The notes beneath the pieces are model-generated. The model was not told the DNA's origin and ran no database searches. It was given only the letters and a program-made list of their open reading frames with translations. The position numbers were made by a program, and so were the translations under genes. From Saccharopolyspora spinosa NRRL 18395 (lineage in GTDB: Bacteria; Actinomycetota; Actinomycetes; Mycobacteriales; Pseudonocardiaceae), in assembly GCF_000194155.1 (NCBI RefSeq), contig NZ_GL877878.1:712458-776457 (forward strand): a stretch of 64,000 nucleotides of DNA, written 5' to 3'. The number at the start of each line of letters is the position of its first letter. Within the stretch, counting starts at the first letter, position 1. This document shows, in pieces, positions 35,303-49,599 of this stretch.

Positions 35303-35332
35303 ACATGAATGTGTGATCAGTTATTCATATGT
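35303..35332. promoter_or_regulatory. SmtB/ArsR-type operator
   Basis: ACATGAAT and ATTCATATGT form an imperfect inverted repeat around TGATCAGTTATTCA, which differs from the classic SmtB core TGAACAGTTATTCA by one base. It lies between the divergent P-type ATPase and repressor starts and should control both. Confidence 0.75.
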
Positions 35333-35354
35333 CCCGGTAGTTAGAATGCCGGGC

Positions 35355-36641: not shown

Positions 36642-36962
36642 GAGCTCCACGGTAAACCGAGCCCCAAGCGCCCCGGTGCGGAGAGAGGTGCCCCTCACTT
36701 TAAAACGCGCCGGCGTACGCTGCGCAAACGCTTTTTGTGCTGGTCACAGGGGATCTGTAGACTCTGCTTAGTCCAGCACTCGGTCGGTGGTTGATAGGTA
36801 TCTATTGTGCTGGTAAGGGCTTTGCCCCTGAGTTCCTGCTACACGGCTGCTACACACAAGATCACAAACATGGACGCCCCGTTCAGCGAGAACCCCCGGC
36901 GCAGAGGCGCGCCGGGGGTTCTCGCTGCGGAGGACAATGACATGGGCGAACGCCGAACGGGC
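36642..36962. other. intergenic region with terminator and short direct repeats
   Basis: No gene is seen in these 321 bases. The region holds one copy of a GAGGTGCCCCTCAC element (36686-36699), also found near 38.28 kb. It has two CTGCTACAC copies (36836-36844 and 36847-36855) of a kind often seen near integrase 3' ends, and a very strong hairpin at 36885-36926. Confidence 0.6.
36885..36926. terminator. strong hairpin terminator
   Basis: A perfect 18-bp stem (AGCGAGAACCCCCGGCGC) with a 6-base loop lies 37 bases after the stop of the MafI-like immunity gene read from the right. It would stop that transcript before ynfA. Confidence 0.8.
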
Positions 36963-37565
36963 TCAAGGCTGGTCGGTGAGGTTCAGCGAGGCAAGCGTGT
37001 TCTCACGGTCGCGGATGTATTCGAGGTCAGCAACCGTGGCCGGGCGGAACCAGTTCAGCAGAGCGGCCAGTGCATCCCGTTCAGGAGGATTCACCGGGAT
37101 CTGCCGGGTGACTAGGCTCGCAGACAACAAGTTGACCAACATTCCCCATTCACCAACGCGGCTCAGCGTGCGGTACTCCTCCAACCGGTCAGGCGGGAGG
37201 CGATCGGCCAGCCGTTCCAGAAGGGCATGTGAATCCGCGCTGAGTTTGCGCAGGTCGTCATGGGTGACGACCCGCGGCTGATCGGCGACCTGGATCGCAG
37301 CCAGCGTCTGGTCACGGTTGCGGATGTAGTCGTAGTCGCCGGTGTCGGTGGGGACCACATCAAGCAGTCGGGTCAGCGTCTCCTTCTCTGCCGGTGTCAC
37401 TTCGGTGTGGCGATTGACCAGCATCTTGCAGATTTCGTTGAGCAACGACGCCGACTCGCCGGCTTCGCCCAGAGCGCGGTACGAGACCAATCGACGCTGC
37501 GGGAGGCGATCGGCGAGTTTCTCCAGCAGCTCGCGTACCGCCTCGTTCAGCTTGACAGCATCCAT
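36963..37565 (-). CDS. MafI-like immunity protein with two repeats
   Basis: A 200-residue protein made of two similar halves (about 8-100 and 105-200). Each has a LxEKLADRLPxxRLxEYR-type helix (LLEKLADRLPQRRLVSYRAL; LLERLADRLPPDRLEEYRTL), then a helix pair, a PxExxxLxxLL segment, and the ending DYDYIRNRDQTLA or DLEYIRDRENTLA. The pattern resembles MafI-family immunity proteins that protect against MafB-type toxins. An EndoU toxin remnant lies directly upstream, which fits. The start at 37565 has GGAGA upstream; GTG 37586 is possible. The duplicated form may bind two toxin surfaces or two variants (inference). Confidence 0.65.
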   Translation of the reverse strand: MDAVKLNEAVRELLEKLADRLPQRRLVSYRALGEAGESASLLNEICKMLVNRHTEVTPAEKETLTRLLDVVPTDTGDYDYIRNRDQTLAAIQVADQPRVVTHDDLRKLSADSHALLERLADRLPPDRLEEYRTLSRVGEWGMLVNLLSASLVTRQIPVNPPERDALAALLNWFRPATVADLEYIRDRENTLASLNLTDQP

Positions 37566-37591
37566 TGTCGTTCTGTCTCCACTCACTCGCT

Positions 37592-37831
37592 TCAGGGTAC
37601 TGGGTGCGGGTTGCCGAACTCATCGTTCTGAACGACGCCCTTGCCACGCACTGGGTAGCCGGTTTGGATCTGTCCATCCGGGGTTACATAACCCTCGATC
37701 TCCACGCCGTCCCTGGTTCCGCTGAACTTGTAGTTCCCACTCTGATCCGACATGACTGGCGGGCGGTCCGGGTTCTTGGCTACCTCCTCAATGGTATTGA
37801 TGATCTTGTCCTCGTCCCATCCGCACCGCAC
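37592..37831 (-). pseudogene. C-terminal remnant of an EndoU ribonuclease toxin
   Basis: An approximately 79-residue frame encodes WDEDKIINTIEEVAKNP, GVEIEGYVTPDGQIQTGYPV and a terminal tail. These match the last half of bacterial EndoU toxin domains (helix with WxxDKI, then G-V-I-x-V and the T-x-Y-P motif). The catalytic His residues of EndoU lie upstream in the family and are missing. The gene is joined to an integrase fragment instead of its secretion and repeat domains. It directly precedes the immunity gene. Confidence 0.65.
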
Positions 37832-38123
37832 TGAGGTACGTAGTCATCGTGCGCGCCTTGATATTCGGCATCCGGCGGATGGCATCCGGCCCGTACGACG
37901 CCAGCGTCGGCACACTGCGCTCCACGGCCACCTCAACCCCCAGCCCGCTGTACAGGCTGCGCAGGCGACGTTCGTAGACATCCCCGGCAAGCTTGGCCGC
38001 ATGCTTGGTCGGGTAGTAGTCCAGCCCTTCCGGGACGCGTGCGCACTTACGGGTATCGGGGTCGCGGTACATCGCAACCCACCGGCCAGGAGTACGCAGG
38101 GCACGGCCATAGCCCATGAGCAT
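37832..38123 (-). pseudogene. N-terminal remnant of a tyrosine recombinase (integrase)
   Basis: About 97 residues encode MGYGRALRTPGRWVAMYRDP, YPTKHAAKLAGDVYERRLRS and NIKARTMTTYLSAV. This is the arm-binding and early core-binding part of an actinomycete integrase. The reading passes into the EndoU fragment at about 37830, and the catalytic domain is absent. A GGAGTACG stretch and multiple ATGs near 38120 could still allow expression of the fragment. Confidence 0.6.
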
Positions 38124-38496
38124 GCTCTCTCAACTCATGAGCACAGCGCACGGCGCACGCCAAGTGCCGGCCGGGCCGTTGTCGATCCCAAGTCGCACAA
38201 CGTGTAGCAAGCTACGCGACAAGATCATCCACGTCGGCCCTGACCAGCGGCGAAACGTGACGAGTGCGTTCGAGGTGAAAGGTGCCCCTCACTCCGAGGA
38301 GATCACTCAGCTGGCGTCGCGGCGGAACGCTACCGCGACCGATGCGCGCCGAAGGCCGCGGTCGCGATCATGAACAGGCCGAACGCGGTGGAACCGGCCG
38401 GCAGCCCGATGGCGTCGTCGCTGTCCGCAGGTCGGAGCCGCCCTGGCCGAGTCGTTGTCCCGGCATCCGCGATTGACGCGATCCGATAAGGTCTTA
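38124..38496. other. intergenic region with degenerate sequence
   Basis: No intact gene is seen in these 373 bases. A second AGGTGCCCCTCAC element lies at 38280-38292. On the minus strand, 38345-38430 reads DSDDAIGLPAGSTAFGLFMI then ATAAFGA, which looks like the tail of a lost membrane protein. Confidence 0.4.
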
Positions 38497-39696
38497 ATGA
38501 TGACCACGGAGACCTCTTTGTCCACCGAGCCCATTTCGATCGACGATCTGGTTGCTCGTTCCGCAGATCTCAAAGGCGAACTGGTCAAGTTCGCTCAAAG
38601 CCGTCGCTTCGCCAGGCAGTTGGACGCGCGGTTTGCCGAAGCCGCTGATGGACATGGTTACCTGAGCGAGGAAACGGCCGTGTGGGTCATCGACCATTTC
38701 GCACTGCAGGACCGGCTGGCAGGCGGTCGTACCCTCCCCGAGCGATTTATCGCGCAGCGGCGACCGCGGCTGTCCGACGTCGAGCAAGAAATGGTGCTTG
38801 GCTGGCGCGACGTCATCGAGGCGTTTTTCGAGGTCCGCCAGTTCGACGGGGACGCCGTCCTGCTGCACAACCTCTTTGACGACCTGGTCTACCGGGTCTA
38901 CTCCAACATGGGGCGCGGTGTGTTCGCGAAGCTGCGCAAGGGGATGTTCGTCGTCGGCCGGATCGTGCCGGTCCACCCTTCCTGCGACGCCTGGCTGGTC
39001 AGCGGGCACTTCGTCTGTTTCCCAAAGTCAGCGCGTCGGCAGATTGCCCAGTCCGCTGCGCAGAAGCTGATCACCCGTCCGGGGGCGCTTCGCCGCAACC
39101 CTGCCCTGCTGCGGCGGTCCTGGGAGATCCAGGCCGAGCAGCGCGCGAATTTCGTCGATCTGGTCGGCTCCGACGTTTTGGTGTTGCCCCCAGCGCAAGC
39201 CCAGGCGACCTTGCGTGAGCACTACCGCCGGATACGCGAGGCCACAGCAAAGCCTGCGGGTAAGTTCGCCAAGCCGACCACCGGTGTCACGCTTGACGAG
39301 TTGACACGCTGGCCCGAGGACCTACTCGAAGCCGAGAGCGTCGCGCTGATCTACGACGAGGTTGAAGGACTCAACTTCTACCGTGATTTCGGCCGACTGG
39401 ACGCCCTGTTCGCCGATCCCTCGCTTGCCAGCGACCGTACCCGCATTGCCCATTTGCGCGAGTACCTGCACGACGAGTCGGTGTCCCCGCTGGCAATCCG
39501 CCGCCTGGTGCAACGCCATCCCGACGGTGCCGACCCGGTTTTCCGTGCCTTGCTAAGCAAACCCGGATTCTCCTGGCCGCGTGATGGCGAGAAACTCCTG
39601 CGCCGCCACAAGAAGTCCTACTTTGACCAAGAGCCGACCCCCAGCATCACCACCGTCGGCGACCGCCTCGCCGAACTTCTCGGCAAGACCAGGTAG
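38497..39696 (+). CDS. hypothetical protein, about 400 residues
   Basis: A 399-residue soluble protein of no family I recognise. Notable stretches are GYLSEETAVWVIDHFALQDR, an acidic helix around VEQEMVLGWRDVIEAFFEVR, the beta-rich KLRKGMFVVGRIVPVHPSCD with WLVSGHFVCFP, and the C-terminal HKKSYFDQEPTPSITTVGDR. The central segment resembles bacterial proteins that carry SEC-C-type or ancillary nucleic-acid domains, but I cannot place it. Two adjacent ATGs (38497, 38500) are both possible starts. Confidence 0.75.
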   Translation: MMTTETSLSTEPISIDDLVARSADLKGELVKFAQSRRFARQLDARFAEAADGHGYLSEETAVWVIDHFALQDRLAGGRTLPERFIAQRRPRLSDVEQEMVLGWRDVIEAFFEVRQFDGDAVLLHNLFDDLVYRVYSNMGRGVFAKLRKGMFVVGRIVPVHPSCDAWLVSGHFVCFPKSARRQIAQSAAQKLITRPGALRRNPALLRRSWEIQAEQRANFVDLVGSDVLVLPPAQAQATLREHYRRIREATAKPAGKFAKPTTGVTLDELTRWPEDLLEAESVALIYDEVEGLNFYRDFGRLDALFADPSLASDRTRIAHLREYLHDESVSPLAIRRLVQRHPDGADPVFRALLSKPGFSWPRDGEKLLRRHKKSYFDQEPTPSITTVGDRLAELLGKTR

Positions 39697-39875
39697 CGAC
39701 GCGGAGTTCGCTGGGCGGCCGTCGCTGTGCTGCGGGAACATTTCGCCGATCGTGTTCTGTAGCCCGGCTAATCGGGTGATAGAACCCTGTTGTGGCTCGG
39801 GTCTCGCGTGGCAGTCGAGTATCTTCCTCGACGGTCCGCGAGATCGTCAAGAAGTGTCGCCGTGGGGGTTCTGGG

Positions 39876-40736
39876 GTGGAGTGCAGCTTTTGGGAATTCG
39901 GCGCGATTGTGCGGCACGAGAAGGCACGTCACGAGGCCGGTTCGGTGTCGGTGGCGGAGGCTCGGCGGAAGTTCGACGTGCCAGTGTTCGTGTTCGCTCA
40001 GGGGAGCGGGCTCAACCAGCCTGAGGATCCCCGGGCGACTGTGCTGGCAGCCGAGGACCGGGTGCGTTCCAGGGGGTGGATTGAGCCTGGCGGGCGGTTG
40101 AACGATCGGTGGTATGAGATCGTTTCCGCGCTGGTCCACGGTCAGTCGTTCGGTTATCTGTATCTCGCTTCGCCTGATGAGGCGGAGACACGGGTGATCG
40201 TGACGGTCAGCGAGGGGTTGGCGTTTCGGCTGCTGCTTCGGGGTGATCGGGTGTGGATCGACGAGGTGCGGCCGGATTCCGCTGAGCAGGCGCTCGTGGC
40301 CAGCCTGCCGGAGGTCGTTCCTGCGTCCGGGCGGGAGGTGCGGTTACCGACGGCGGTACTGCATGCGGCCGGGTTGGAGGCGGAGAATCACAAGGCGGAC
40401 CAAGGGGATTGGATCGCCTACGAGCTTGGGCAGGCCGGCGTCTCGACGGAGGACGCCACGGCGGTCGGCAGGCTTTCGAAGCTCGCGGATCGCGCGACCG
40501 GGCAGTTCAACGTCGGCATCCACGAATCCGATGGCACGCCTCGGCTGGCTCCGTGGGCGATCACGGTGCACCACAGCCCGTCGGGGCGAGTCGCGCAGAT
40601 CCCGCAGCCGCCTCGCGGAGAGCAAATCCTGGTCACCCCAGCGAGCAACAGGACGCTGGCCGTGGCGCTGCGCACCTACCGCGACGAGCTGCACCAGCAG
40701 GTCCGCGACGCTCGGCGGCCTCGGCGATCCGGGTAG
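39876..40736 (+). CDS. EspG-family ESX secretion-associated chaperone
   Basis: A protein of about 286 residues of the EspG family (PF14011), cytosolic chaperones that in mycobacteria bind PE-PPE pairs for type VII secretion. The N-terminus has the strand pattern VECSFWEFGAIVRHEKARH. It is followed by VFVFAQGSGLNQPEDPRATV, RWYEIVSALVHGQSFGYLYL and a C-terminal region ending with AVALRTYRDELHQQVRDARR. The exact start is uncertain; a longer frame from 39792 lacks family features. It heads the PE-like/DUF3558/PPE-like array, which supports a chaperone role. Confidence 0.8.
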   Translation: MECSFWEFGAIVRHEKARHEAGSVSVAEARRKFDVPVFVFAQGSGLNQPEDPRATVLAAEDRVRSRGWIEPGGRLNDRWYEIVSALVHGQSFGYLYLASPDEAETRVIVTVSEGLAFRLLLRGDRVWIDEVRPDSAEQALVASLPEVVPASGREVRLPTAVLHAAGLEAENHKADQGDWIAYELGQAGVSTEDATAVGRLSKLADRATGQFNVGIHESDGTPRLAPWAITVHHSPSGRVAQIPQPPRGEQILVTPASNRTLAVALRTYRDELHQQVRDARRPRRSG

Positions 40737-40821
40737 TTCTCTGCTGGTTTTGCCCACCGTCACAGTGAGCTATGACACGATCACGCGCGGACGCAGGATC
40801 GGTCTTGGGAAGGACGAGCCT

Positions 40822-41151
40822 GTGAGCGAGCCGGTAAGCGTCAGCGGTCACCAGGCGTTCTACGTCGACCTCGACCGCGCACCCGAACTCCTAGCCGAGC
40901 TCGACGGCGTGCGGGAGAAGTACGAGGTAGCGCGTGACATAGCCACGCAGCTGGCGAATATCACGCCGCCGTTCGTTGACGACGTGACCGTCGAGGTCTT
41001 CAGGAAGCTTGGCGAACGTGCTCAAGGTGGCGAAGGCAGCCTTTATGACACGGCCCAAGGCATGATCCAGTGGATCATCGATTTTCAGGCCGCTGTGCAA
41101 AAAGCAATTGATGAGCACAAGCGCATCGACGAAGAGAATCGGATGGGATGA
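40822..41151 (+). CDS. PE-like small helical protein (module A)
   Basis: A 109-residue two-helix protein (SVSGHQAFYVDLDRAPELLA, ELDGVREKYEVARDIATQLA, RAQGGEGSLYDTAQGMIQWI). By size, helical content, EspG neighbour and PPE-like partner I infer a PE/WXG100-type type VII substrate. GTG start with AAGGAC upstream. The stop overlaps the next lipoprotein start by four bases. Copies lie at 41731 (chimeric) and 44205, with a relic at 14390. Confidence 0.7.
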   Translation: MSEPVSVSGHQAFYVDLDRAPELLAELDGVREKYEVARDIATQLANITPPFVDDVTVEVFRKLGERAQGGEGSLYDTAQGMIQWIIDFQAAVQKAIDEHKRIDEENRMG

Positions 41152-41729
41152 CCGTGCACACCACGCGCGCCACCCTTGCGGTGACAGCGAGTCTTCTGAC
41201 GGTTGGCTTGGCGGGTTGCGCCGCGCCACCCGGTACCCCTGAACCAACCGCCAACGGCGAGGCGACTTCCGCTGCGAGGGATCCGCTGCACATCGACAAA
41301 CCGAAAAGCCTTCGAGCGATTGCGGACCCTTGTCAGCTTCTGACGCCTGCACAATTGCAGCACCTCAACGCGGGAACTCCGGAGTCGGGACAGTCCCAGT
41401 GGGGGCAAGCGGAGTGCACATGGCGGAACCAGCAACTGCGGATCAACATCGCTCCAGACACTGTCCAAGGCCAAGGGCTGCGCTGGATGGCGAAGACCGC
41501 TGGAGATGGGAACGGCAACCCGAACGCCGAGGTCAACGGGTATCCAGCGGTCCATTACGGCATCAGTTCTGGGTCTTGTGGAACCTACGTCGGGACATCC
41601 GACAAGGAACTGTTCCTGGTGAACTTCCAGACAGGCAGTGAGGGCAAGGGCAATCCGGAGTATGCGGATCCGTGTGCGATGGCCGACAGGATCGCGGGTT
41701 TGGTGCTGGAGAACATTCCTTCGGTGTGA
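41148..41729 (+). CDS. DUF3558 lipoprotein (module A)
   Basis: A 193-residue lipoprotein with a signal peptide and lipobox (LLTVGLAGCAAP), then the core IADPCQLLTPAQLQHLNAG, ECTWRNQQLRINIAPDTVQG, SGSCGTYVG and the conserved tail NPEYADPCAMADRIAGLVLE. Four Cys suggest disulfides outside the membrane. Coupled to the PE-like gene. It is about half identical by eye to the copy at 42108. Confidence 0.88.
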   Translation: MTVHTTRATLAVTASLLTVGLAGCAAPPGTPEPTANGEATSAARDPLHIDKPKSLRAIADPCQLLTPAQLQHLNAGTPESGQSQWGQAECTWRNQQLRINIAPDTVQGQGLRWMAKTAGDGNGNPNAEVNGYPAVHYGISSGSCGTYVGTSDKELFLVNFQTGSEGKGNPEYADPCAMADRIAGLVLENIPSV

Positions 41730-41730
41730 G

Positions 41731-42111
41731 ATGGGGGTAGGTGGGGGACATGGAGCTTTTCGGTTGGTTGTTCGGCACCCGGGAGATTCCGGGGCAGGCG
41801 CAGGCGGAGTTCGATCATCCGAAGTCGACCTCGACCGCGCACCCGAACTCCTGGCTGAGCTCGACGGCATGCGGGAGAAGTACACGACGACACGGGATAT
41901 GGCGACTGAGCTGGCGACCATCATGCCGCCATTTGGGGATGACGTGACGATTGCGGTCTTCCAGAAGCTCGGGGAACGCGCTCAGGGCGGTGAGGGATGT
42001 CTCTACGGCACCGCGCAGGGAATGATCGACTGGATTGACGGTTTCAAGGCCGCCGTGCAGAAAGCGATCGACGAGCACAAACGCATCGACAACGAGACCT
42101 GGATGGCATGA
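41731..42111 (+). pseudogene. chimera of a PPE-like 5' end and a PE-like gene (modules A/B)
   Basis: 41731-41824 is nearly identical to 42684-42785, the start of the PPE-like gene (MELFGWLFGTREIPGQAQAE from 41750). At about 41824 it changes to the PE-like gene at the codons for VDLDRAPELLAELDGMREKY and continues to DEHKRIDNETWMA. The two parts are in different frames. A 126-residue hybrid starting at 41731 (MGVGGGHGAFRLVVRHP) is possible in the PE frame. It marks the crossover between module copies. The lipoprotein start is still coupled at 42108. Confidence 0.8.
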
Positions 42112-42683
42112 CCGTGCATACCAAACGCACCACTCTCCTAGCAGTAGCAAGCTTGTTCACCCTCGGACTGGTCGGCTGCACCGCACCTGCATTGGAAAAG
42201 CCAGTTCCTAGCCCGCAGACCAGCTCAGCTGTCGAGGATCCGCTCCACATCGAGCAGCCCAAGAACCTCGCTGCCGTGTCCGACCCATGTCAGTTCCTGA
42301 CGTCCACGCAAGTGCAGCAGCTTAGGGCAGGCAGTGCTGAGCCGGGCCAGTCGGAGTGGGGGCAAGGAGCCTGTAAGTGGCGTAATCAGCTGTTCGAAGT
42401 CAAGATCTCGCCCGACACTGTGCAGGGCCAAGGGCTTCGTTGGATGGCGAAAACCGCCGGCGACAATGGGAATCCGAACGCGAATGTCAGCGGCTACCCT
42501 GCGGTGCACTATGGCGTGTCCGGCGGCTCATGTGGCACCTTCGTCGGAACATCGGACAAAGAGCTGCTCCTAGTGAATTTCCAAACCGGTTCCGATGGGC
42601 GTTGGAATCCGGAGTATGCGGATCCGTGTTCGATGGCCGACAAGATCGCGGGTTTGGTGCTGGAGAACGTTCCTTCGGCGTGA
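42108..42683 (+). CDS. DUF3558 lipoprotein (module B)
   Basis: A 191-residue paralogue of the proteins at 41148 and 44531. It has the lipobox LVGC, VSDPCQFLTSTQVQQLRAG, ACKWRNQLFEVKISPDTVQG, GGSCGTFVG and NPEYADPCSMADKIAGLVLE. The signal peptide and C-terminus are best conserved, while the central strand region differs among copies, which suggests surface diversification. Confidence 0.88.
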   Translation: MTVHTKRTTLLAVASLFTLGLVGCTAPALEKPVPSPQTSSAVEDPLHIEQPKNLAAVSDPCQFLTSTQVQQLRAGSAEPGQSEWGQGACKWRNQLFEVKISPDTVQGQGLRWMAKTAGDNGNPNANVSGYPAVHYGVSGGSCGTFVGTSDKELLLVNFQTGSDGRWNPEYADPCSMADKIAGLVLENVPSA

Positions 42684-42703
42684 GATGGGAGTCGGTGGGG
42701 GAC

Positions 42704-43984
42704 ATGGAGCTTTTCGGTTGGTTGTTCGGCACCCGGGAGATTCCGGGGCAGGCGCAGGCGGAGTTCGATCATCCGAAGGTCTACGGCGAGGTTGAGTCCG
42801 GGCCGGGGGTGGCTGCGGCGTCGCGGGCGGCGGCGAACTGGCGGGATCGGGTCAGCGCCGCGTTCGGTGCGGCCGACGGGGATCTGGATCGGGCGCTGAA
42901 GAAGTTCGACGTCGTCATGCAGGGTGCCGCCGGCGAGCAGGCCAAGGACGCGGTGACACCGTTGTCGCAGGCCACCCGGCAATCCATCGAGGTAGCCGCG
43001 CAGGTCGGGGCGGCGGTGGAGCAGCAGGCCCAGGGTTCGGCGGACTTCAAGTACGCCTTCCCGCCGCCGTATCAGGTGCCGCCGGACAACATCGGGTGGA
43101 CCGACTACGTCAACCCGATCGCCTACGGGTTCAAGACCGAGGTGCGTGCTGCGCACGAGGAACACCATGACCAGGTCGAGGCGCAGGCGCGGCAGCAGTA
43201 CGAGACCTACACCCAGGCCAGCAACGACCGGGCGAACACGGTGCAGCGGTTCGATCCGCCGCCGACGTTCACCGCCGACGTCGCCCCTGCGGACACCGCG
43301 CCGGTGCACAAGGTCGACCCGAACCCGGGTTACACCGGCGCGACCACCACAACCCCTGCGAGCACCGGGCAGCCGTCGAGCGATCGTACCGGTTCGCCCA
43401 CCGAAGTGCCGTCACGTACGCCAGGTCAACCGATCGTCCCGAATGGACAGTCGATGTCCCCGGTTCCGCAATCGCCAGCAGAATCCGGTTCGGTGTGGGC
43501 CATGCCTCCCGCAGCGGGCACCACCCCGCCGCTGCCCGGTACTGGTGTGCCGACATCTCCTGGCGTTGGTGGGGGAGGGTTCGTTGGTGATGCGGTGATC
43601 TCAAGGGCCAGCACCAGCGGCCCGGGCGTCGCTGGCCGAGTCGGCGGTGGCACCGGACCTGGCCGAGGAGTCGGCGGTTTGGGTGGCAGTGTGCTGAGCC
43701 CCGGTGGCTCGTCCGGCGGGGGCGGCTCGACGCCGGGTGGCGCCGCTGCCGGTGACAACGTGACCACGCGAGGCGGTGCCGGTGCTGCTGCTGGTGGCGC
43801 GGGTACTGGGCGCGGCAAGCGTGAGGACGAGGACAAAGAGCATGTGAACAAGTACTTGGCCCCCACCGATGATGCGTGGGAGGAGCTGGGCTTGCCGAAG
43901 ACGGCCCCGCCCGTGTTTGGTGACTGGGCCGCCCAGAATCCGGAGGGCAAACCCCCTCGCCCTCCGGAGAAGGGCGCCCCGTGA
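42704..43984 (+). CDS. PPE-like protein (full-length copy, module B)
   Basis: A 426-residue protein. It has an N-terminal conserved tag MELFGWLFGTREIPGQAQAE and a helical domain (about 40-190) with VAAASRAAANWRDRVSAAFG and AFPPPYQVPPDNIGWTDYVN, like the PPE fold. A low-complexity Pro/Gly/Thr-rich linker follows (190-390), and the C-terminus KYLAPTDDAWEELGLPKTAP resembles those of actinobacterial PPE proteins. There is no signal peptide, consistent with type VII export. ATG 42704 with a GGTGGGGG site. It has partners in the coupled PE-like and lipoprotein genes, and EspG is upstream. Confidence 0.75.
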   Translation: MELFGWLFGTREIPGQAQAEFDHPKVYGEVESGPGVAAASRAAANWRDRVSAAFGAADGDLDRALKKFDVVMQGAAGEQAKDAVTPLSQATRQSIEVAAQVGAAVEQQAQGSADFKYAFPPPYQVPPDNIGWTDYVNPIAYGFKTEVRAAHEEHHDQVEAQARQQYETYTQASNDRANTVQRFDPPPTFTADVAPADTAPVHKVDPNPGYTGATTTTPASTGQPSSDRTGSPTEVPSRTPGQPIVPNGQSMSPVPQSPAESGSVWAMPPAAGTTPPLPGTGVPTSPGVGGGGFVGDAVISRASTSGPGVAGRVGGGTGPGRGVGGLGGSVLSPGGSSGGGGSTPGGAAAGDNVTTRGGAGAAAGGAGTGRGKREDEDKEHVNKYLAPTDDAWEELGLPKTAPPVFGDWAAQNPEGKPPRPPEKGAP

Positions 43985-44007
43985 TCGCAGGTCACCTTTC
44001 GCCACAA

Positions 44008-44050
44008 GCTGGCCGCGGCCTCCCATCCTCCTCGGGAAGCCGCGGCCAGC
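44008..44050 (+). terminator. hairpin terminator, copy 1
   Basis: A 17-bp stem with one mismatch (GCTGGCCGCGGCCTCCC with GGGAAGCCGCGGCCAGC) and a 9-base loop follow the PPE-like stop by 23 bases. The same hairpin occurs at 45187. Confidence 0.8.
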
Positions 44051-44204
44051 CACCTTTCACCCCGCATCCGGTTTGGGCACGATCTTCGTCCGTCCAGTTT
44101 GGACTTCTTCAGCGCACCATGAACACGCAGCCGGTTATCCTTTTTGGACGCTTCACTGGGCAGCGTGAGCACGCCACACAGTCGCTCTTAGGAAGGATGA
44201 GCCA

Positions 44205-44534
44205 GTGAGCGAGTCGGTAAGCGTCAGCGGTCACCAGGCTCTCTACGTCGACCTCGACCGCGCACCCGAACTCCTAGCCGAGCTCGACGGCGTGCGGGAG
44301 AAGTACGAGGCAGCGCAGGATGTCGCGTATGAACTTTCTCGGATCATGCCGCCGTTTGGAGACGATGTGACCGTTGAGGTCTTCAGGCAACTCGGTGAGC
44401 GTGCTCAGGGCGGTGAGCGAAGCCTGTTCGACACGGCTCAGGGAATGATCGACTGGATCGACGGCTTCAAGGCCGCTGTGCAGAAGGCAATCGACGAGCA
44501 CAAGCGCATCGACAACGAGACCTGGATGGCATGA
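44205..44534 (+). CDS. PE-like small helical protein (module C)
   Basis: A 109-residue near-copy of the protein at 40822 (SVSGHQALYVDLDRAPELLA, ELDGVREKYEAAQDVAYELS, AVQKAIDEHKRIDNETWMA). GTG start with AGGAAGGA upstream. The preceding 160 bases repeat those after 45190, including a degenerate copy of the zinc-ribbon gene's 3' end on the minus strand. Coupled to the next lipoprotein by ATGA. Confidence 0.7.
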   Translation: MSESVSVSGHQALYVDLDRAPELLAELDGVREKYEAAQDVAYELSRIMPPFGDDVTVEVFRQLGERAQGGERSLFDTAQGMIDWIDGFKAAVQKAIDEHKRIDNETWMA

Positions 44535-45109
44535 CCGTGCACACGCCACGCACCACCCTGATCACTGCGGCCGGCCTGCTCGTCTTTGGGCTAGCCGGTT
44601 GCTCCGAATCTCCACCGCAGACCCCGACTCCCAGCCTGAAGACCACCTCCGCTGCGACGGATCCGTTCTACATCGAGCGGCCCAGGAACCTAGCCGCGGT
44701 CTCCGATCCGTGCGAGCTGTTGACATCCGCGCAGGTGCAGCTTCTCCGCGCAGGTGATGTCAAGCACGGAGAGTCCGAATGGGGCCAGCCATCCTGTGAA
44801 TGGCGCAACCAGCAGTTCTCCATGACAGTTGCCCCGGACACAGAGCAGGGGCAGGGGCTGAAGTACACGGCAAAGATCTGGGGTGACGGAGAGGGGAAAC
44901 CCACTGGGGCTGTAAACGGTTACCAGCTGGTTCATGGTGGTATTAACGACATTCGCTGTAGCGCGACGGTCGGCGTGTCGGACACCCAGACCCTGACGGT
45001 TCATTTCACGGCGGGTTCCGAGGGGCGTGGGAATCCGGAGTATGCGGACCCGTGTGCGATGGCCGACAGGATCGCGGGTTTGGTGCTGGAGAACGTTCCT
45101 TCGGCGTGA
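44531..45109 (+). CDS. DUF3558 lipoprotein (module C)
   Basis: A 192-residue lipoprotein with lipobox LAGC, VSDPCELLTSAQVQLLRAGD, SCEWRNQQFSMTVAPDTEQG and NPEYADPCAMADRIAGLVLE. The middle (GDGEGKPTGAVNGYQLVHGG) is the most divergent among the three module copies. Confidence 0.88.
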   Translation: MTVHTPRTTLITAAGLLVFGLAGCSESPPQTPTPSLKTTSAATDPFYIERPRNLAAVSDPCELLTSAQVQLLRAGDVKHGESEWGQPSCEWRNQQFSMTVAPDTEQGQGLKYTAKIWGDGEGKPTGAVNGYQLVHGGINDIRCSATVGVSDTQTLTVHFTAGSEGRGNPEYADPCAMADRIAGLVLENVPSA

Positions 45110-45129
45110 GATGGGAGTCGGTGGGGGAC

Positions 45130-45348
45130 ATGGAGCTTTTCGGTTGGTTGTTCGGCGTGGAACTCTTCTTGCCGAAGACACCACATGCTGGCCGCGGCTT
45201 CCCATCCCCCTCGGGAAGCCGCGGCCAGCCCCCTTTCACCCCGCATCCGGCTTGGGCACGATCCTTATCTGTCCAGTTTGTACTTCTTCGGAGCACCATG
45301 AACACGCCGGCCGGTTATCCTTTTTGGGCGCCTCACTGGGCAGCGTGA
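45130..45348 (+). pseudogene. truncated PPE-like gene (module C)
   Basis: It begins with MELFGWLFG exactly like 42704. After nine codons it jumps to sequence normally found after the end of the PPE-like gene (VELFLPKTP, then the hairpin region). The 72-residue frame therefore runs through the terminator and ends in a composition without family character. An internal deletion of about 1.2 kb explains it. Confidence 0.75.
45187..45229. terminator. hairpin terminator, copy 2
   Basis: A perfect 17-bp stem (GCTGGCCGCGGCTTCCC) with a 9-base loop lies between the convergent lipoprotein and zinc-ribbon genes. It duplicates the hairpin at 44008 together with about 170 bases on its right. Confidence 0.85.
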
Positions 45349-45607
45349 GCACGCCGCACAGTGCGGTCAGCTTGCCGTCTTCGCGGTATCGCGGTCGGGC
45401 TGGCAGGACGTGGTTGTGGTAGCCGAACGCTGCCCAGTATCCCGGCGGAATATCAACGCCTGGCAAGGTTTCCTCTTCCTCGAGGTTGTTCGTGGACCGG
45501 TTGGGGTGGATGGCCGGGCAATGCCGGGGGACATCGGGGAGGTGATACACCGCCCGGCCATCCAGGGTGCCCGAGCGCCGCTTGGGGAAGGGGCGGGGTT
45601 CGGGCAC
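45236..45607 (-). CDS. zinc-ribbon-like protein
   Basis: A 123-residue protein. The middle GYWAAFGYHNHVLPARPRYR leads to a ribbon TALCGVL and CSWCSEEVQ, then a basic tail (GQIRIVPKPDAG). The same Cys spacing is seen in the small genes around 15 kb. A decayed copy of its 3' end (SKKDNRLRVHG) is on the minus strand at about 44050-44170. The function is unknown. Confidence 0.6.
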   Translation of the reverse strand: MPEPRPFPKRRSGTLDGRAVYHLPDVPRHCPAIHPNRSTNNLEEEETLPGVDIPPGYWAAFGYHNHVLPARPRYREDGKLTALCGVLTLPSEAPKKDNRPACSWCSEEVQTGQIRIVPKPDAG

Positions 45608-45668
45608 GCGGGATCGGCGAGGACACCGGCCTGGGAGGGGGAAACGATGCGCGGTGCCCCCGCCGGGT

Positions 45669-46007
45669 CTACATGCGCAGCGGTCCGGCGAGGATTCGCC
45701 GTAGTGTTACCGGATGCGGCGCGAAGTCCTCGTGATCGACCGGTAGTTCACGCTCGATCATCGGCAGCACTCTGGTTTTGGCGTCGGCGAAGTCGTCGGC
45801 CATCTCGCCGCGCGGCCGCAAAGGTTCGCGTAGTCGATGTCGGCCGCCGCTGCTGGTCTCGGCCTCGACGCGCATGGTCAGGTACCGAACCGTCAGCGCC
45901 CCTTCGCCGCCGCCAGCATGCTGCGGGCGATACGCCCAGTAGTGGCAGATGTACCAGATGGCGACCGGAACGACGGTGAGAACGGATGCGACGCTCGACG
46001 CGCTCAA
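45669..46007 (-). CDS. small membrane-anchored protein, paralogue of 11945 gene
   Basis: A 112-residue protein with one transmembrane helix (VASVLTVVPVAIWYICHYW) and then QHAGGGEGALTVRYLTMRVE and SGGRHRLREPLRPRGEMADD. These match the protein at 11945-12295 motif for motif. The TTG start overlaps the preceding zinc-finger gene by four bases. Unknown function; the recurring pairing suggests a conserved two- or three-gene unit. Confidence 0.78.
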   Translation of the reverse strand: MSASSVASVLTVVPVAIWYICHYWAYRPQHAGGGEGALTVRYLTMRVEAETSSGGRHRLREPLRPRGEMADDFADAKTRVLPMIERELPVDHEDFAPHPVTLRRILAGPLRM

Positions 46008-46255
46008 GGTTCACGCCTTCCTGGTTCAGTGCACTGCTCTGCGCGGAGAATTTCGTTGCAGCGAAGGCATGTTGGAAAGACGCACCAGTCCATTTCGGAG
46101 GGTTTGGCCATCGCCACTTCCTGTCCGCAAACGGTCGTTTCGGAAGGCTGTCCTTCCCAGCGCGCCCCGCGGAAGGCGTGGCGTGTTCCGCCGATATCGC
46201 CTGCTTTTGGGGTCGGCAGCCAGTAGTGGCGGTTCATGGCGTGCTTAGTGGTCAT
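46004..46255 (-). CDS. small zinc-finger-like protein, paralogue of 11461 gene
   Basis: An 83-residue protein starting MTTKHAMNRHYWLPTPKAGD, with RHAF, VCGQE and CVFPTCLRCN giving a likely zinc site. The layout is the same as the 91-residue gene at 11461. It is divergent from the XRE regulator at 46446, with palindromes between them. Confidence 0.7.
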   Translation of the reverse strand: MTTKHAMNRHYWLPTPKAGDIGGTRHAFRGARWEGQPSETTVCGQEVAMAKPSEMDWCVFPTCLRCNEILRAEQCTEPGRREP

Positions 46256-46311
46256 CGCGCCTGCCTCGGCTTTCAGCATGTTCCCTTACGGGGTGCAACT
46301 TCGAAACTGAT

Positions 46312-46363
46312 GATCACGTGATCGACAAAGTGTAAGTTACACTGAAACAATCCTGGTGTAAGT
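46312..46363. promoter_or_regulatory. cluster of operator candidates
   Basis: Two perfect palindromes lie together: GATCACGTGATC at 46312-46323 and GTGTAAGTTACAC at 46330-46342. A further direct GTGTAAGT copy is at 46356-46363. They sit between the divergent zinc-finger gene and the WhiJ-like regulator and are likely binding sites for that regulator. Confidence 0.55.
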
Positions 46364-46445
46364 CCATCGATAGGGTTGTGTCGCTAGTTGGCAGTTGATC
46401 GATCACCGGGGAGACTGGTCGCCGTCACACAACGCAGGAGGTGTC

Positions 46446-47303
46446 ATGGCCGGGGTAGCCCCGACGATGGGACGACGCCGATTGGGCGGCGTGCTGAAGA
46501 CGTTGCGCCTCGGTGCTGGACTCAGCAACGAGCAGGCCAGGCAGCGCGCAAGCATGTCTACCGCGAAGCTCTCGCGGCTTGAAACCGGCCACAACGTGGT
46601 GCTCCTGAAGGATGTTCGCGCGCTGCTGGACGCCTACAACGCCGACGGCAAGACACGGAGCAAGGTTCTGCAACTCGCTCAGGCGGCGGAGCAAAGCGGG
46701 TGGTGGCAGCAGTTCGACGACGTCCTACCAACGGACTTCGACCTGTACCTCAGCGTTGAAGAGGCAGCCGCATCCCTCCTCGTCTTCGAAACTTCGATCA
46801 TGCACGGGTTGCTCCAGACGGAGAACTACGCCCGAGCCTGGCTTCGCGCAGAGGATCCCGGCAGACCCAACGGTGAGTTGGAGCGGCTCGTCGGCTTGCG
46901 GATGGCACGACGACAAGCGCTGACGCGAAAAGATGATCCACTCACGGTTTGGGCCGTGCTTGACGAAGCGGTGTTCCGCAGGCGTGTGGGTGGCCCAGAG
47001 GTCATGCGCGAACAACTCAAACACCTGCTCACGTTGTGCGAAAGCACCAACGTAACGATTCAGATCTTGCCCTTCATCGCAGGCGAGCATGTTGCCGCGA
47101 GCGGTTCGTTCACGCTTGTCGAGTTCTCCGAGCCCACCGATCCCGAGATCGGCTACGTGGACTGCGCTGCGGGTAACGTCTATCCCGAGAAGTCGGCGCA
47201 GGTACGCAGGATGAAGACGAACTTCCATCATCTGACCAGCGCCGCGCTGGAGCCGATAAAGTCGCTGGCGTTCATCCGCAAGGTACAGAGGGAGTTGACG
47301 TGA
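46446..47303 (+). CDS. WhiJ-like XRE regulator with DUF5753 (second cassette)
   Basis: A 285-residue regulator. XRE domain: LGGVLKTLRLGAGLSNEQAR, then STAKLSRLETGHNVV. DUF5753: SIMHGLLQTENYARAWLRAE, FIAGEHVAASGSFTLVEFSE and a C-terminal helix. ATG 46446 has AGGAGG six bases upstream, a much better start than the longer frame. Its stop overlaps the DUF397 start (GTGA). It probably works with the small DUF397 proteins in developmental control, as WhiJ does with its partners. Confidence 0.92.
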   Translation: MAGVAPTMGRRRLGGVLKTLRLGAGLSNEQARQRASMSTAKLSRLETGHNVVLLKDVRALLDAYNADGKTRSKVLQLAQAAEQSGWWQQFDDVLPTDFDLYLSVEEAAASLLVFETSIMHGLLQTENYARAWLRAEDPGRPNGELERLVGLRMARRQALTRKDDPLTVWAVLDEAVFRRRVGGPEVMREQLKHLLTLCESTNVTIQILPFIAGEHVAASGSFTLVEFSEPTDPEIGYVDCAAGNVYPEKSAQVRRMKTNFHHLTSAALEPIKSLAFIRKVQRELT

Positions 47304-47512
47304 GCCACGTTGAGAGGGCATCCGACTTACCGATTCGGTGGCGCAAGAGCAGCCGCAGTCAGCAAGGGTCGCAGTGCGTTGAGGTCGGTGCCACTGCGGA
47401 GTTCGCCGCTGTCCGAGACTCGAAGAACCCGACGGGGCCCGCGTTGCTGTTCCCGCCAGCCGCGTTCACCGCGATGATCCGTTCGGTCAAGTCGGGTCGC
47501 TTGGACGGCTGA
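47300..47512 (+). CDS. DUF397 (BldB-like) small protein, copy 1
   Basis: A 70-residue protein with the full domain: RWRKSSRSQQGSQCVEVGA, AAVRDSKNPTGPALLFPPAA and a C-terminal FTAMIRSVKSGRLDG. GTG start translationally coupled with the regulator. Family members counteract or assist WhiJ-like regulators. Confidence 0.92.
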   Translation: MSHVERASDLPIRWRKSSRSQQGSQCVEVGATAEFAAVRDSKNPTGPALLFPPAAFTAMIRSVKSGRLDG

Positions 47513-47521
47513 CGTGGGGTC

Positions 47522-47638
47522 GTGGTGGCAGAGCTTTCGCGGTTGTTCGGCACTCTCCAAGCGCAAGCTCTTTCGGCCAAGGAGTCGAGGCGTCTGCTGG
47601 GTAGCATCGCGGATGCGCACACCGGTTCGAAGGAGTGA
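47522..47638 (+). CDS. possible 38-residue peptide gene between two DUF397 genes
   Basis: An open frame starting GTG encodes VVAELSRLFGTLQAQALSAK then ESRRLLGSIADAHTGSKE, a clear amphipathic helix. It fits in the 131-base gap and ends six bases before the next gene's start codon. The composition and position fit a real small gene, but no ribosome-binding site is convincing. Confidence 0.4.
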   Translation: MVAELSRLFGTLQAQALSAKESRRLLGSIADAHTGSKE

Positions 47639-47643
47639 GAGAC

Positions 47644-47841
47644 GTGAGCCCGACACCCTTATGGCGCAAATCCAGCCGCAGTGCTCAGGCAGGCAACTGC
47701 GTTGAGGTCGCCACGAACATGATGGATACCGCCCTGGTCCGTGACAGCAAGCTCGGCGATTCGTCTCCGATCATGGTCTTGTCTCGAAAGGTGTTCGCGG
47801 GGTTCATCTGCAGCATCAAGTCCGGTCGCTTGGACGGCTGA
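47644..47841 (+). CDS. DUF397 (BldB-like) small protein, copy 2
   Basis: A 65-residue protein (PLWRKSSRSAQAGNCVEVAT, then ALVRDSKLGDSSPIMVLSRK) ending FICSIKSGRLDG like copy 1. GTG at 47644 has AAGGAG nine bases upstream. A tandem duplicate of the first DUF397 with a diverged middle. Confidence 0.9.
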   Translation: MSPTPLWRKSSRSAQAGNCVEVATNMMDTALVRDSKLGDSSPIMVLSRKVFAGFICSIKSGRLDG

Positions 47842-47844
47842 AGT

Positions 47845-47892
47845 GCTCGTGAGTGGTTGTGCCAGTAAGGACCGGAACAGTCACTCACGAGC
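47845..47892. terminator. bidirectional hairpin terminator
   Basis: A perfect 11-bp stem (GCTCGTGAGTG with CACTCACGAGC) encloses a 26-base loop between the convergent DUF397 and fhs genes, suitable for both directions. Confidence 0.65.
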
Positions 47893-47901
47893 CCTGACCG
47901 C

Positions 47902-49599
47902 TTAGCTGAGGCCGGTGATCTGGCCGTGGTCGTCGATGTCGATCGATTCCGCCGCCGGATGGGAGCCCAGGCCCGGCATCGTCCGCATCTCCCCGCAGAT
48001 CGGGTAGATGAAGCCCGCTCCCACCGAGGCCCGGACCTCCCGGACCGGGAGGGTCCAGCCCGTCGGGGCACCGAGCAGGGTCGGGTCCGAGCTCAGCGAC
48101 AGGTGGGTCTTGGCGATGCACACCGGGAGGTTCCCGAAGCCGTTGGCCTCGTAGCTGTCCAGGGCGCGGGCCGCCGCAGGAAGGTACGACACCCCTGCCG
48201 CGCCGTATACCTTGGTCGCGATGGTTTCGATCTTCGCCCGCAGGTCCGCCGAATCCGGGTAGAGCAGCTGGAACGCGGTCGGTTCCTCAGCCGCCGCGAC
48301 CACCGCTTCGGCCAGCTCCAGCGCGCCCTTGCCGCCCTCCAGGAAGTGGTTGCTGGTCGCGACGCGCGCGCCTTCTGCCTCGGCGACCTGGCGGATCGCC
48401 TCGTGCTCGCTGGAGTAGTCGGTCGGGAACGCGTTGATCGCGACCACCGGCGACACCCCGTGCAGCCGGATGTTGTCGATCTGCTTGCGCAGGTTCGCCG
48501 CCCCGGCCAGCACGTCGTCGGGGTTCTCGGCCAGCATCGCCGCAGGCAGCGGCTTGCCCGCCACCACCTTGTACCGGCCGGAGTGCGCCTTCAGCGCGCG
48601 CACCGTTGCCACCAGCACCGCCGCGTCCGGGCGCAGGCCGGAGGTGCGGCACTTGATGTTGAAGAACCGCTCCGCGCCCATGTCGGCCCCGAACCCGGCC
48701 TCGGTGACCACGTAGTCCGCGCACCGGCTGGCGATGCGGTCGGCCACCACCGACGAGTTGCCGTGCGCGATATTGCCGAACGGTCCCGCGTGCACCAGCA
48801 CCGGTGTGTTCTCGGTGGTCTGCATCAGGTTCGGTTTGATCGCCTCGCGCATGATCACCGCCATCGCCCCGGCCGCCCGCAGCTGCTCGGCGCTGACCGG
48901 CTCGCCGTCGCGGGTGTAGCCCACCACGATCCGGCCCAGCCGCCGCCGCATGTCCTGCAGCGATGTGGAAAGTGCCAGCACCGCCATCACCTCGCTGGCC
49001 GCGGTGATGTCGAAACCGGTCTGCCGCGGCGTGCCGTCGAGTTGACCGCCGAGGCCGGTGACGATGTTGCGCAGGTCCCGGTCGTTGACGTCCAGCACCC
49101 GCCGCCAGGTGATCCGGTGCGGGTCGATGCCCAGCGAATTCCCCCGGTGCAGGTGGTTTTCCAGCATCGCGGCCAGCAGGTTGTGTGCCGCCGTGACCGC
49201 GTGCATGTCGCCGGTGAGGTGCAGGTTCAGCGCCTCCATCGGCACCACCTGGCTGTACCCGCCGCCGGCGGCGCCGCCCTTGATGCCGAACGTCGGGCCC
49301 ATCGACGGCTGCCGGATCGCCACCGCGGACCGTTTGCCGAGGTGCCGCAGGGCTTGGCCCAGCCCTACTGTCGTGGTCGTCTTGCCTTCGCCCAGCGGGG
49401 TGGGTGTGATCGCCGAGACCACGACGTAGCGGGCGGTCGGTTGCACGGGCAGCTCGTCGAGCGCTTCGAGCGAGATCTTCGCGGCGCTGCGCCCGTAGGG
49501 TTCGAGCAGGTGCGCGCCAATGCCCAACTGCGCTGCGACGTCCTCCAGCGGCAGGAGCGCGGTGGCGCGCGAGATGTCCAAATCGGACGGAATGCTCAT
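47902..49599 (-). CDS. fhs: formate-tetrahydrofolate ligase
   Basis: A 565-residue enzyme that makes 10-formyl-THF from formate, THF and ATP, or runs in reverse to recover formate and ATP. Motifs: TPLGEGKTTTTVGLGQAL (ATP site) near residue 60, RQPSMGPTFGIKGGAAGGGY, a C-terminal region with VREVRASVGAGFIYPICGEM and MPGLGSHPAA. The length is normal. It is the last gene of the minus-strand dmg/gcvT-like/metF/fhs run. Here it would drain one-carbon units from dimethylglycine or sarcosine demethylation. Confidence 0.96.
   Translation of the reverse strand: MSIPSDLDISRATALLPLEDVAAQLGIGAHLLEPYGRSAAKISLEALDELPVQPTARYVVVSAITPTPLGEGKTTTTVGLGQALRHLGKRSAVAIRQPSMGPTFGIKGGAAGGGYSQVVPMEALNLHLTGDMHAVTAAHNLLAAMLENHLHRGNSLGIDPHRITWRRVLDVNDRDLRNIVTGLGGQLDGTPRQTGFDITAASEVMAVLALSTSLQDMRRRLGRIVVGYTRDGEPVSAEQLRAAGAMAVIMREAIKPNLMQTTENTPVLVHAGPFGNIAHGNSSVVADRIASRCADYVVTEAGFGADMGAERFFNIKCRTSGLRPDAAVLVATVRALKAHSGRYKVVAGKPLPAAMLAENPDDVLAGAANLRKQIDNIRLHGVSPVVAINAFPTDYSSEHEAIRQVAEAEGARVATSNHFLEGGKGALELAEAVVAAAEEPTAFQLLYPDSADLRAKIETIATKVYGAAGVSYLPAAARALDSYEANGFGNLPVCIAKTHLSLSSDPTLLGAPTGWTLPVREVRASVGAGFIYPICGEMRTMPGLGSHPAAESIDIDDHGQITGLS

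What the first reader, a model, noticed from the sequence alone, without database searches (positions are those of the whole stretch)
39876..45348. Tandem array of PE-like/DUF3558/PPE-like modules behind an EspG gene
After an EspG chaperone gene, three modules follow in one direction: a small helical PE-like gene, a DUF3558 lipoprotein with 4-base overlap, and a PPE-like gene starting MELFGWLFG. The PE genes and lipoprotein ends are nearly identical between copies, while the lipoprotein centres differ. Only one PPE-like gene is full length. No secretion machinery is in the window. The pattern looks like a recombining, diversifying repertoire of type VII-associated surface proteins, with one DUF3558 lipoprotein per predicted secreted pair. 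I know of no described role for such a DUF3558-PE-PPE unit. Seen: the repeats and gene order. Inferred: PE/PPE identity and surface function.
Basis: partly seen in the sequence, partly recalled or inferred. Interest (0 to 1): 0.8.

Follow-up and report, generated by a model that had tools for sequence, protein, structure and literature searches.

The report
Swappable genes for secreted surface proteins
A soil bacterium carries a tandem set of genes for proteins probably exported by a tuberculosis-type secretion system, each with a membrane-anchored lipoprotein; the set is a conserved gene team in related bacteria whose central part seems to be exchanged between species like a cassette.

Summary
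The array is real and the PE/PPE reading largely holds. EspG and the one full PPE gene pass Pfam cut-offs; the PE-like genes link to PE only through distant relatives. The genus is probably Saccharopolyspora.

New here: PE, DUF3558 lipoprotein, PPE and EspG form a conserved module. At 40 PPE loci from 22 genera of the family, 37 have a DUF3558 gene within 3.5 kb. The 11 closest loci in congeners each carry the four genes once. In this genome 14 of 20 DUF3558 genes adjoin a PPE-like gene.

Array ends are homogenised, interiors as diverged as between species. At one shared locus, two close species with 93-98% identical flanks differ by 28-44% across PE, lipoprotein and PPE start.

Corrections: PE genes are near-identical only in their first 32 codons; of the lipoprotein ends only the 3' end matches; two PPE genes are remnants and PE2 lost its start. 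ESX genes lie elsewhere.

Best mechanism, inferred: the lipoprotein is the outer-face membrane partner of the secreted PE-PPE pair. My library searches found no report of this link.

The parts
39876..40736 (+). EspG-family gene, the only one of the array
   Evidence: Pfam PF14011 E 1.1e-26, 94 bits, cut-off 27; 60-76% identical proteins at the head of the module in congeners
40822..41151 (+). PE1, PE-like helical gene; C-terminal HKRID in place of YxxxD/E
   Evidence: alignment A1; stop overlaps the LP1 start by 4 bases
41148..41729 (+). LP1, DUF3558 lipoprotein, central type A
   Evidence: Pfam PF12079 E 7.7e-24; lipobox LAGC and four further conserved Cys
41750..41947 (+). PPE remnant 1: first 75 bases (41750-41824) of a PPE gene joined to the PE2 body (one base shared)
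   Evidence: identical to the first 75 bases of PPE2
41731..42111 (+). PE2: intact PE body from 41824; native start and first 14 codons lost; open frame from ATG 41731 out of frame with the PPE remnant
   Evidence: whether it is translated is not known
42108..42683 (+). LP2, DUF3558 lipoprotein, central type A
   Evidence: Pfam PF12079 E 3.5e-22; 89% identical to LP1 in the stretch aligned to LP3 residues 105-160
42704..43984 (+). PPE2, the only full PPE-like gene: PPE domain, Gly/Pro-rich linker, C-terminal block EDKEH...LPKTAPPVFGDW
   Evidence: Pfam PF00823 E 3.2e-6, 27.7 bits, cut-off 26; alignment A3
44008..44050 (+). inverted repeat just after PPE2, repeated after PPE remnant 3 (45187-45229); possibly a terminator
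   Evidence: read from sequence; lies in repeat D3; not folded
44205..44534 (+). PE3, PE-like gene with native GTG start
44531..45109 (+). LP3, DUF3558 lipoprotein, central type B
   Evidence: Pfam PF12079 E 1.9e-22; residues 94-160 group with G015a, G012 and G008, support 95/94
45130..45348 (+). PPE remnant 3: nine codons, apparent remnant of a PPE 3' end (LPKT), then copied downstream sequence
46395..47512 (+). helix-turn-helix/DUF5753 regulator and DUF397 gene beside the array (possible regulator, inferred)
   Evidence: Pfam DUF5753 9e-55, HTH_31 2e-12, DUF397 8e-22; DUF397 genes lie near DUF3558 loci more often than random places

Best explanation
The array is a locally expanded and partly decayed copy of a conserved module of type VII (ESX) secretion: EspG chaperone, PE-like, DUF3558 lipoprotein, PPE-like. 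Shown: conserved co-occurrence, 4-base overlaps in the array, lipobox and four extra conserved cysteines, ESX core genes elsewhere in the genome, and a pattern of exchange that changes PE, lipoprotein and PPE start together. Inferred: EspG delivers the PE-PPE dimer to an ESX machine; the DUF3558 protein, exported separately and anchored by lipid on the outer face of the cytoplasmic membrane, captures or assembles the secreted dimer there, so that it acts as a dedicated receptor or tether. Sequence variety in the lipoprotein and PE would then set the specificity of that contact. In this strain the PE-lipoprotein part has been multiplied around one PPE, with two old lipoprotein types (A and B) held side by side.
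For: Module: by my own profiles, DUF3558 within 3.5 kb (midpoints) on the same strand in 37 of 40 PPE loci from 22 genera, PE 37, EspG 36, all four 32; two main orders, LP-PE-PPE-EspG 16 and EspG-PE-LP-PPE 12. The 40 were picked by me from the capped list, strongest plus a spread of genera, without regard to neighbours. The 11 loci found with PE3 in 9 of 21 congeners each hold the four genes in order, once. In this genome 14 of 20 above-cut-off DUF3558 genes have a PPE-like neighbour; of the five weaker ones, three were scanned and pass Pfam PPE (L068, L069, L073), L070 and L074 were not scanned. In genome G104, another genus, 9 of 11 DUF3558 genes have PPE and EspG matches beside them.
Anchoring: 73 of 79 lipoproteins with their N-terminus match a lipobox pattern; of the six misses two (G010, G001) have a hydrophobic anchor instead, the others are near misses of the pattern or cut. 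Four further cysteines in 78-81 of 83.
Co-inheritance: G012 against G001, flanks 93-98% identical, PE 62-67%, LP 56-72%, first 300 bases of PPE 67%, PPE C part 89%. PE type and PPE type (read by eye) agree at 13 of 13 loci, Fisher 0.0006 without correction for kinship.
Array: ends homogenised, interiors diverged; one clade of the three copies rejected for LP residues 94-160, p-AU 0.004.
Multiplication: two to seven lipoproteins beside one PPE at four of the 40 loci, L111, L112, L119, L127.
Against: No direct evidence of binding, secretion, anchoring or expression. DUF3558 also occurs without PE/PPE: 3 of 20 genes here (L075, L146, L147); 0 of 9 fetched loci of family f8 outside genus g65 and neither of two loci from families f5 and f15 show PE/PPE/EspG matches, though my profiles miss the lipoprotein itself at several of these, and one (L167) has two small genes ending in YxxxD beside it. 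In g65, 18 loci fetched, EspG or PPE matches in 6, all weak (E 4e-4 to 6e-3). LP type A/B does not follow PE or PPE type, which weakens a tight LP-PPE match. The one-clade test is not significant for LP 41-93 (p 0.073) or PE 25-109 (p 0.063) and was posed after seeing the sequences. At the shared locus the PE-LP block tends to be less conserved than its flanks even between species with the same type, so faster evolution adds to the contrast. The usual Tyr of the YxxxD/E signal is His in the window's PEs. In 8 of 40 loci at least one of the four genes was not found.
Confidence: 0.5

Rival explanations
1. The DUF3558 lipoprotein is an immunity or neutralising protein against the secreted PPE (or against the PPE of neighbours), as TilA is for the T7-secreted lipase TslA in Staphylococcus aureus; arrays of extra lipoproteins are orphan immunity genes.
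For: Same gene kinds: lipoprotein, long T7 substrate, small helical partner; lipoproteins multiply beside one substrate gene (L127 seven, L119 three); the array keeps three lipoproteins with one PPE. TslA/TilA precedent with variable-copy lipoproteins (PMC10730906, passages).
Against: In 17 PPE-like proteins scanned at E<=0.1 the only hits besides PPE are EspA_EspE (2 members, best 0.018) and PAC_bac (1, 0.027); no enzymatic or toxin domain. The PPE C-terminus is conserved in the alignment, not polymorphic. No PADLOC hit in the six proteins scanned.
Confidence: 0.18
2. The lipoprotein is an independent envelope protein that only shares an operon and regulator with PE/PPE; the linkage reflects co-expression.
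For: DUF3558 occurs without PE/PPE matches in family f8 and at three loci here. One study lists lprB and lprC mutants among those less sensitive to augmentin than wild type (PMC12802301, one passage; that LprB/LprC are DUF3558 is recalled).
Against: Linkage in two different gene orders across 22 genera and joint exchange with PE and the PPE start are more than shared promoters require.
Confidence: 0.2
3. The window array is mainly a decaying duplication with no working gain: two PPE genes and the PE2 start are already broken.
For: PPE remnants 1 and 3 and the lost PE2 start; none of the 21 other genus genomes searched shows tandem PE3 matches at E<=1e-12.
Against: Three lipoproteins, PE1, PE3 and PPE2 have intact frames; LP1 and LP3 interiors are old and distinct types.
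Confidence: 0.12

Closest known systems
Mycobacterial PE-PPE pairs with EspG chaperone (ESX-3, ESX-5 and others)
   Same: EspG PF14011, PPE domain PF00823, PE-like helical partner, ESX core genes in the genome
   Different: no PPE motif at the N-terminus, WxG replaced by MQG in the window PPE, PE ends in HxxxD; a DUF3558 lipoprotein is part of the module; none of the module genes lies in the 20 kb stretches fetched around the two EccB genes
ESX-4EVOL clusters of some mycolic-acid producers (PMC4791881, passages)
   Same: espG, pe and ppe outside the genus Mycobacterium
   Different: there the genes belong to an ESX cluster and the passages seen name no lipoprotein; here they are stand-alone modules
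TslA/TilA/TlaA1/TlaA2 cassette of Staphylococcus aureus (PMC10730906, passages)
   Same: T7 substrate with small helical partners and a lipoprotein whose copy number varies
   Different: different families (DUF576, lipase, reverse domain order); the PPE here has no recognised enzyme domain
DUF3558 lipoproteins LprB/LprC of mycobacteria (identity recalled)
   Same: family PF12079
   Different: the nine f8 loci fetched outside genus g65 (unnamed; which of them are mycobacteria is not known) show no PE, PPE or EspG match beside them

Membership tests
PPE family | PPE domain by Pfam PF00823 above cut-off | tested here: met
   27.7 bits against 26; 17 of 17 aligned proteins match at E<=0.1
PPE family | Pro-Pro-Glu motif near the N-terminus and WxG turn (features recalled) | tested here: not met
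   PPE2 begins MELFGWLFGTRE and has MQG at the turn; own paralogues L057 and L058 keep WSG/WTG. Hence PPE-like
PE family | PE domain by Pfam PF00934 | tested here: inconclusive
   no hit for the three window PEs; 3 of 18 aligned members hit, best 4.4e-6; profile to PE25 0.017-0.1
ESX substrate | C-terminal YxxxD/E signal (recalled) | tested here: inconclusive
   D103 invariant in 18 of 18; the Tyr position is His in 15 and Tyr in 3
EspG chaperone | PF14011 above cut-off | tested here: met
   94.4 bits against 27; no PDB chain of EspG found by single-sequence search
EspG chaperone | binds the PPE tip | not testable with these tools
   structure prediction off
DUF3558 | PF12079 above cut-off | tested here: met
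   79.6-85 bits against 34.1 for all three
Lipoprotein | signal peptide with lipobox Cys | tested here: met
   LAGC, LVGC, LAGC in LP1-3; 73 of 79 by pattern; acylation untested
ESX-dependent system | ESX core genes in the genome | tested here: met
   EccB at two loci; EccD, EccE and an FtsK/SpoIIIE ATPase at L066; EccD and an FtsK/SpoIIIE ATPase at L067; MycP not searched
T7 toxin-immunity cassette (TslA/TilA type) | recognisable toxin or enzyme domain in the substrate | tested here: not met
   no such domain in 17 PPE-like proteins scanned at E<=0.1

The most novel reading that the evidence does not exclude
DUF3558 lipoproteins are an unrecognised, dedicated outer-face component of PE-PPE secretion modules in Pseudonocardiaceae-type actinomycetes: a membrane-bound recognition partner whose specificity is swapped between strains and species as a PE-lipoprotein-PPE(N) cassette and stockpiled in tandem arrays, making a variable cell-surface recognition or self/non-self system built on type VII secretion.
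Probability: 0.25. Interest if true: 0.85.

Novelty: new variant of a known kind. Interest (0 to 1): 0.62.

Why it matters
A 2025 review still calls PE/PPE 'unique to mycobacteria' (PMC12209268, one abstract passage). Here EspG-PE-PPE-like modules are found in 22 genera of another family and, at 37 of 40 loci examined, with a lipoprotein of unknown function. That gives DUF3558 a concrete hypothesis that can be tested in soil bacteria, and gives PE/PPE biology a model with a built-in candidate for what holds the secreted pair at the cell surface.

Tried and rejected
Structure prediction of PE and lipoprotein: switched off. Profile search of DUF3558 in the PDB: nothing meaningful, best 0.28, LpqN at 1.9. 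Single-sequence searches of PPE2 and EspG in the PDB: nothing relevant. NCBIfam: no hit for nine proteins. The idea that the lipoprotein replaces the missing mycomembrane in mycolate-free bacteria was considered and set aside: the family's lack of mycolic acids is recalled, and f8 genus g65 shows some weak PPE/EspG matches beside DUF3558, so the contrast is not clean. Anti-phage defence: no PADLOC hit in six proteins. One-clade tests for PE and LP 41-93 did not reach 0.05. Whether the array came in on a mobile element: the empty sites show a variable spot, with recombinase-like and transposase-like frames in G007 (by eye), but I found no element ends and did not search for them systematically. 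A possible integrase fragment at 37791-38123 had no Pfam hit. A first scan of genome contigs with one PPE found nothing; a second with an alignment found seven loci. An extension of the L127 array found no further lipoprotein.
Full report
Observation. The region 39876-45348 holds an EspG gene and three PE-like/DUF3558 units with three PPE starts, all on the plus strand. Repeats of 300, 254, 144 and 53 nt confirm a tandem array. Pfam names EspG (1e-26), DUF3558 three times (8e-24 to 4e-22) and PPE once (3e-6, just above cut-off); the PE-like proteins have no Pfam hit of their own. Two PPE genes are remnants and PE2 has lost its start.

Where. 

Is it PE/PPE? 17 of 17 PPE-like proteins from this genome and relatives match Pfam PPE at E<=0.1, best 9e-16, and their profile matches PPE4 and PPE41 structures (1e-6 to 4e-3). 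For PE, 3 of 18 aligned members match Pfam PE, best 4e-6, and window PE3 finds two distant paralogues in this genome at about 1e-7. Against it: the PE profile reaches PE25 only at 0.017-0.1, with an unrelated chain above it. The PPE has neither the PPE motif nor WxG, and the PEs end HxxxD rather than YxxxD. I therefore write PE-like and PPE-like.

Machinery. EccB occurs at two places in the 8.58 Mb genome, neither in the window. One holds EccB, EccD, EccE and an FtsK/SpoIIIE ATPase beside what look like rpoA and ribosomal protein genes (names by eye); the other EccB, EccD and an FtsK/SpoIIIE ATPase. MycP was not searched.

A conserved module. In this genome the same genes recur at six further places: EspG-PE-LP-PPE at L056, L057, L058 and L059, PE-LP-PPE-EspG at L063, LP-PE-PPE-EspG at L060. 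Of 20 DUF3558 genes above cut-off, 14 have a PPE-like neighbour (five of them with weaker PPE matches: L068, L069, L070, L073, L074; Pfam PPE confirmed at the three scanned) and three more a small gene ending in a YxxxD-like motif (window 13.8 kb, L071, L072). The small partner genes at the weaker loci are named by position and C-terminus only: of seven scanned (L068, L069, L070, L072, L073, L074, window 14390-14716) none reached a Pfam cut-off and only L072 had a weak EspB_PE hit (0.0067). The L071 partner was not scanned; those at L071 and in the window look incomplete. The remaining three DUF3558 genes (L075, L146, L147) have no such neighbour.

In the genus, PE3 at E<=1e-12 finds 11 loci in 9 of 21 other genomes; each of the 11 carries EspG-PE-LP-PPE in that order, singly (one EspG, L091, lies in two frames); only this genome has the tandem. 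I fetched 40 of the listed matches, strongest plus a spread, from 22 genera by genus code: with profiles built from my alignments (E<=1e-3), DUF3558 lies within 3.5 kb on the same strand in 37, PE in 37, EspG in 36, all four in 32. PE matches at loci of the order LP-PE-PPE-EspG are weak (4e-9 to 8e-4). Main orders: LP-PE-PPE-EspG 16, EspG-PE-LP-PPE 12. From the other side, in genome G104 of another genus, 9 of 11 DUF3558 genes have PPE and EspG matches beside them. In the wider order 24 of 81 genomes have DUF3558 at E<=1e-8. Nine f8 loci outside genus g65 and one locus each of families f5 and f15 show no PE/PPE/EspG match; 18 loci of g65 only six weak PPE/EspG matches. My profiles often miss even the lipoprotein there, some PPE-like C-termini are visible by eye in g65 (L174, L175, L183), and L167 has two small genes ending in YxxxD, so these are lower bounds.

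Lipoprotein. Of 79 distinct DUF3558 proteins with an N-terminus in the match, 73 fit a lipobox pattern; four further cysteines are kept in 78-81 of 83. Two congeners (G010, G001) have a hydrophobic anchor instead of a lipobox. Lipoproteins multiply beside one PPE at L111 (two between PE and PPE, one before PE at the contig end), L112 (two), L119 (three, at a contig end) and L127 (seven).

Recombination in the array. Third codon positions of copies 1 and 3 agree at 31 of 32 in PE codons 1-32 and 24 of 28 in the last LP codons, but 41 of 77 in PE codons 33-109 (Fisher 6e-7). In PE codons 33-70 the window copies agree with each other at 47-58% of third positions, but with G009 and G007a at 61-68%, so the interiors are at least as diverged as between species; in codons 71-109 PE2 and PE3 agree at 74% and PE3 with G009 at 87%. 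LP3 residues 94-160 belong to a second type shared with G015a, G012 and G008; one clade of the three window copies is rejected there (p-AU 0.004, question posed after seeing the data), not for LP 41-93 (0.073) or PE 25-109 (0.063).

Recombination between species. Five congeners (G012, G001, G010, G008, G014) share the flanks of one module locus, three others (G007a, G015a, G018) those of another. G012 against G001: upstream 96%, EspG 86%, spacer 51%, PE 67% and 62%, LP 56%, 63%, 72% from start to end, PPE first 300 bases 67%, rest of the domain 84%, C-terminal part 89%, downstream 98, 97, 93%. G012 against G010 is alike (flanks 89-95%, PE 66%, LP 56-67%). G012 against G008, with more distant flanks (85-91%), is closer in LP 94-160 (88%), and G001 against G010 there 93%. 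So the block groups the species otherwise than the flanks do, which is what replacement of a PE-LP-PPE(N) block looks like; the block also tends to be less conserved than the flanks between species of the same type, so faster evolution contributes. The second shared locus shows no such sharp contrast: its flanks align poorly over much of their length. PE type and PPE type (read by eye; G018 a variant) agree at 13 of 13 loci while LP type A/B occurs with both; kinship was not corrected for.

Place in the genome. The array lies between conserved genes, UPF0060 (36306-36698) and a gene I take for formate-tetrahydrofolate ligase (47902-49641, name by eye). At the place of the latter in five congeners (G007, G015, G008, G019, G014) the interval to the nearest conserved gene on the other side (UPF0060 in G007 and G015, the gene at 35172-35699 in the others) is 4 to 8 kb, with other contents and no PE, LP or PPE match at E<=0.01; G014 has two weak EspG matches. 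The nearest relative by that gene, G007 (98%), carries its modules elsewhere.

Mechanism. Shown: conserved linkage, anchoring signal, exchange. Inferred: EspG escorts the PE-PPE dimer to ESX; the lipoprotein receives it at the outer face of the membrane; block exchange changes specificity. The main rival is immunity, modelled on TilA (PMC10730906, passages); it is favoured by lipoprotein multiplication and disfavoured by the lack of any toxin domain.

Literature. Library searches, listings only unless said: DUF3558 with type VII secretion 0 papers, DUF3558 alone 1 unrelated, EspG/lipoprotein/PPE/Pseudonocardiaceae (three of four terms) 42 papers, the 20 listed are mycobacterial or unrelated by title, EspG with Amycolatopsis and type VII 0, type VII secretion with Saccharopolyspora 9, EspG with PPE proteins, Actinobacteria and Nocardia 2, LprB with LprC and lipoprotein 4, PPE/EspG/chaperone terms 25, 10 listed. 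Passages were read in PMC4791881, PMC10730906, PMC12209268 and PMC12802301; PMC4791881 reports espG, pe and ppe in ESX-4EVOL clusters of mycolic-acid producers. The library lacks most subscription papers, so absence here is not proof.

Noticed in passing
46395-47841: Helix-turn-helix/DUF5753 gene and two DUF397 genes beside the array. Genome-wide, 10 of 18 DUF3558 loci lie within 8 kb of a DUF397 gene against 1.8 expected for random places (0 of 20,000 draws reached 10; regional clustering not controlled).
   Followed up: partly
13848-14393 and 14390-14716 (minus strand): A lone DUF3558 lipoprotein overlaps a small gene ending DYRSTDDQIAQDLQRGIQ whose first half looks lost; no PPE match beside it.
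   Followed up: partly
36698-47902: This interval is a variable spot: in G007 it holds recombinase- and transposase-like frames, in G015 a WXG-like long gene and, next to it, a small gene with YAGTDE near its end (all by eye).
   Followed up: partly
L127 (G119): Seven DUF3558 lipoproteins, six of them in a row after one EspG-PE-LP-PPE set.
   Followed up: partly
L062:8518-8938: A broken EspG copy (66-72% identical, frame broken) elsewhere in this genome.
   Followed up: no
C-terminus of PPE2, about 43830-43984, and relatives: A C-terminal block, acidic with EH then APPVxG, ends most PPE-like proteins aligned here and, by eye, several in G104; purpose unknown, candidate for lipoprotein or wall binding.
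   Followed up: no
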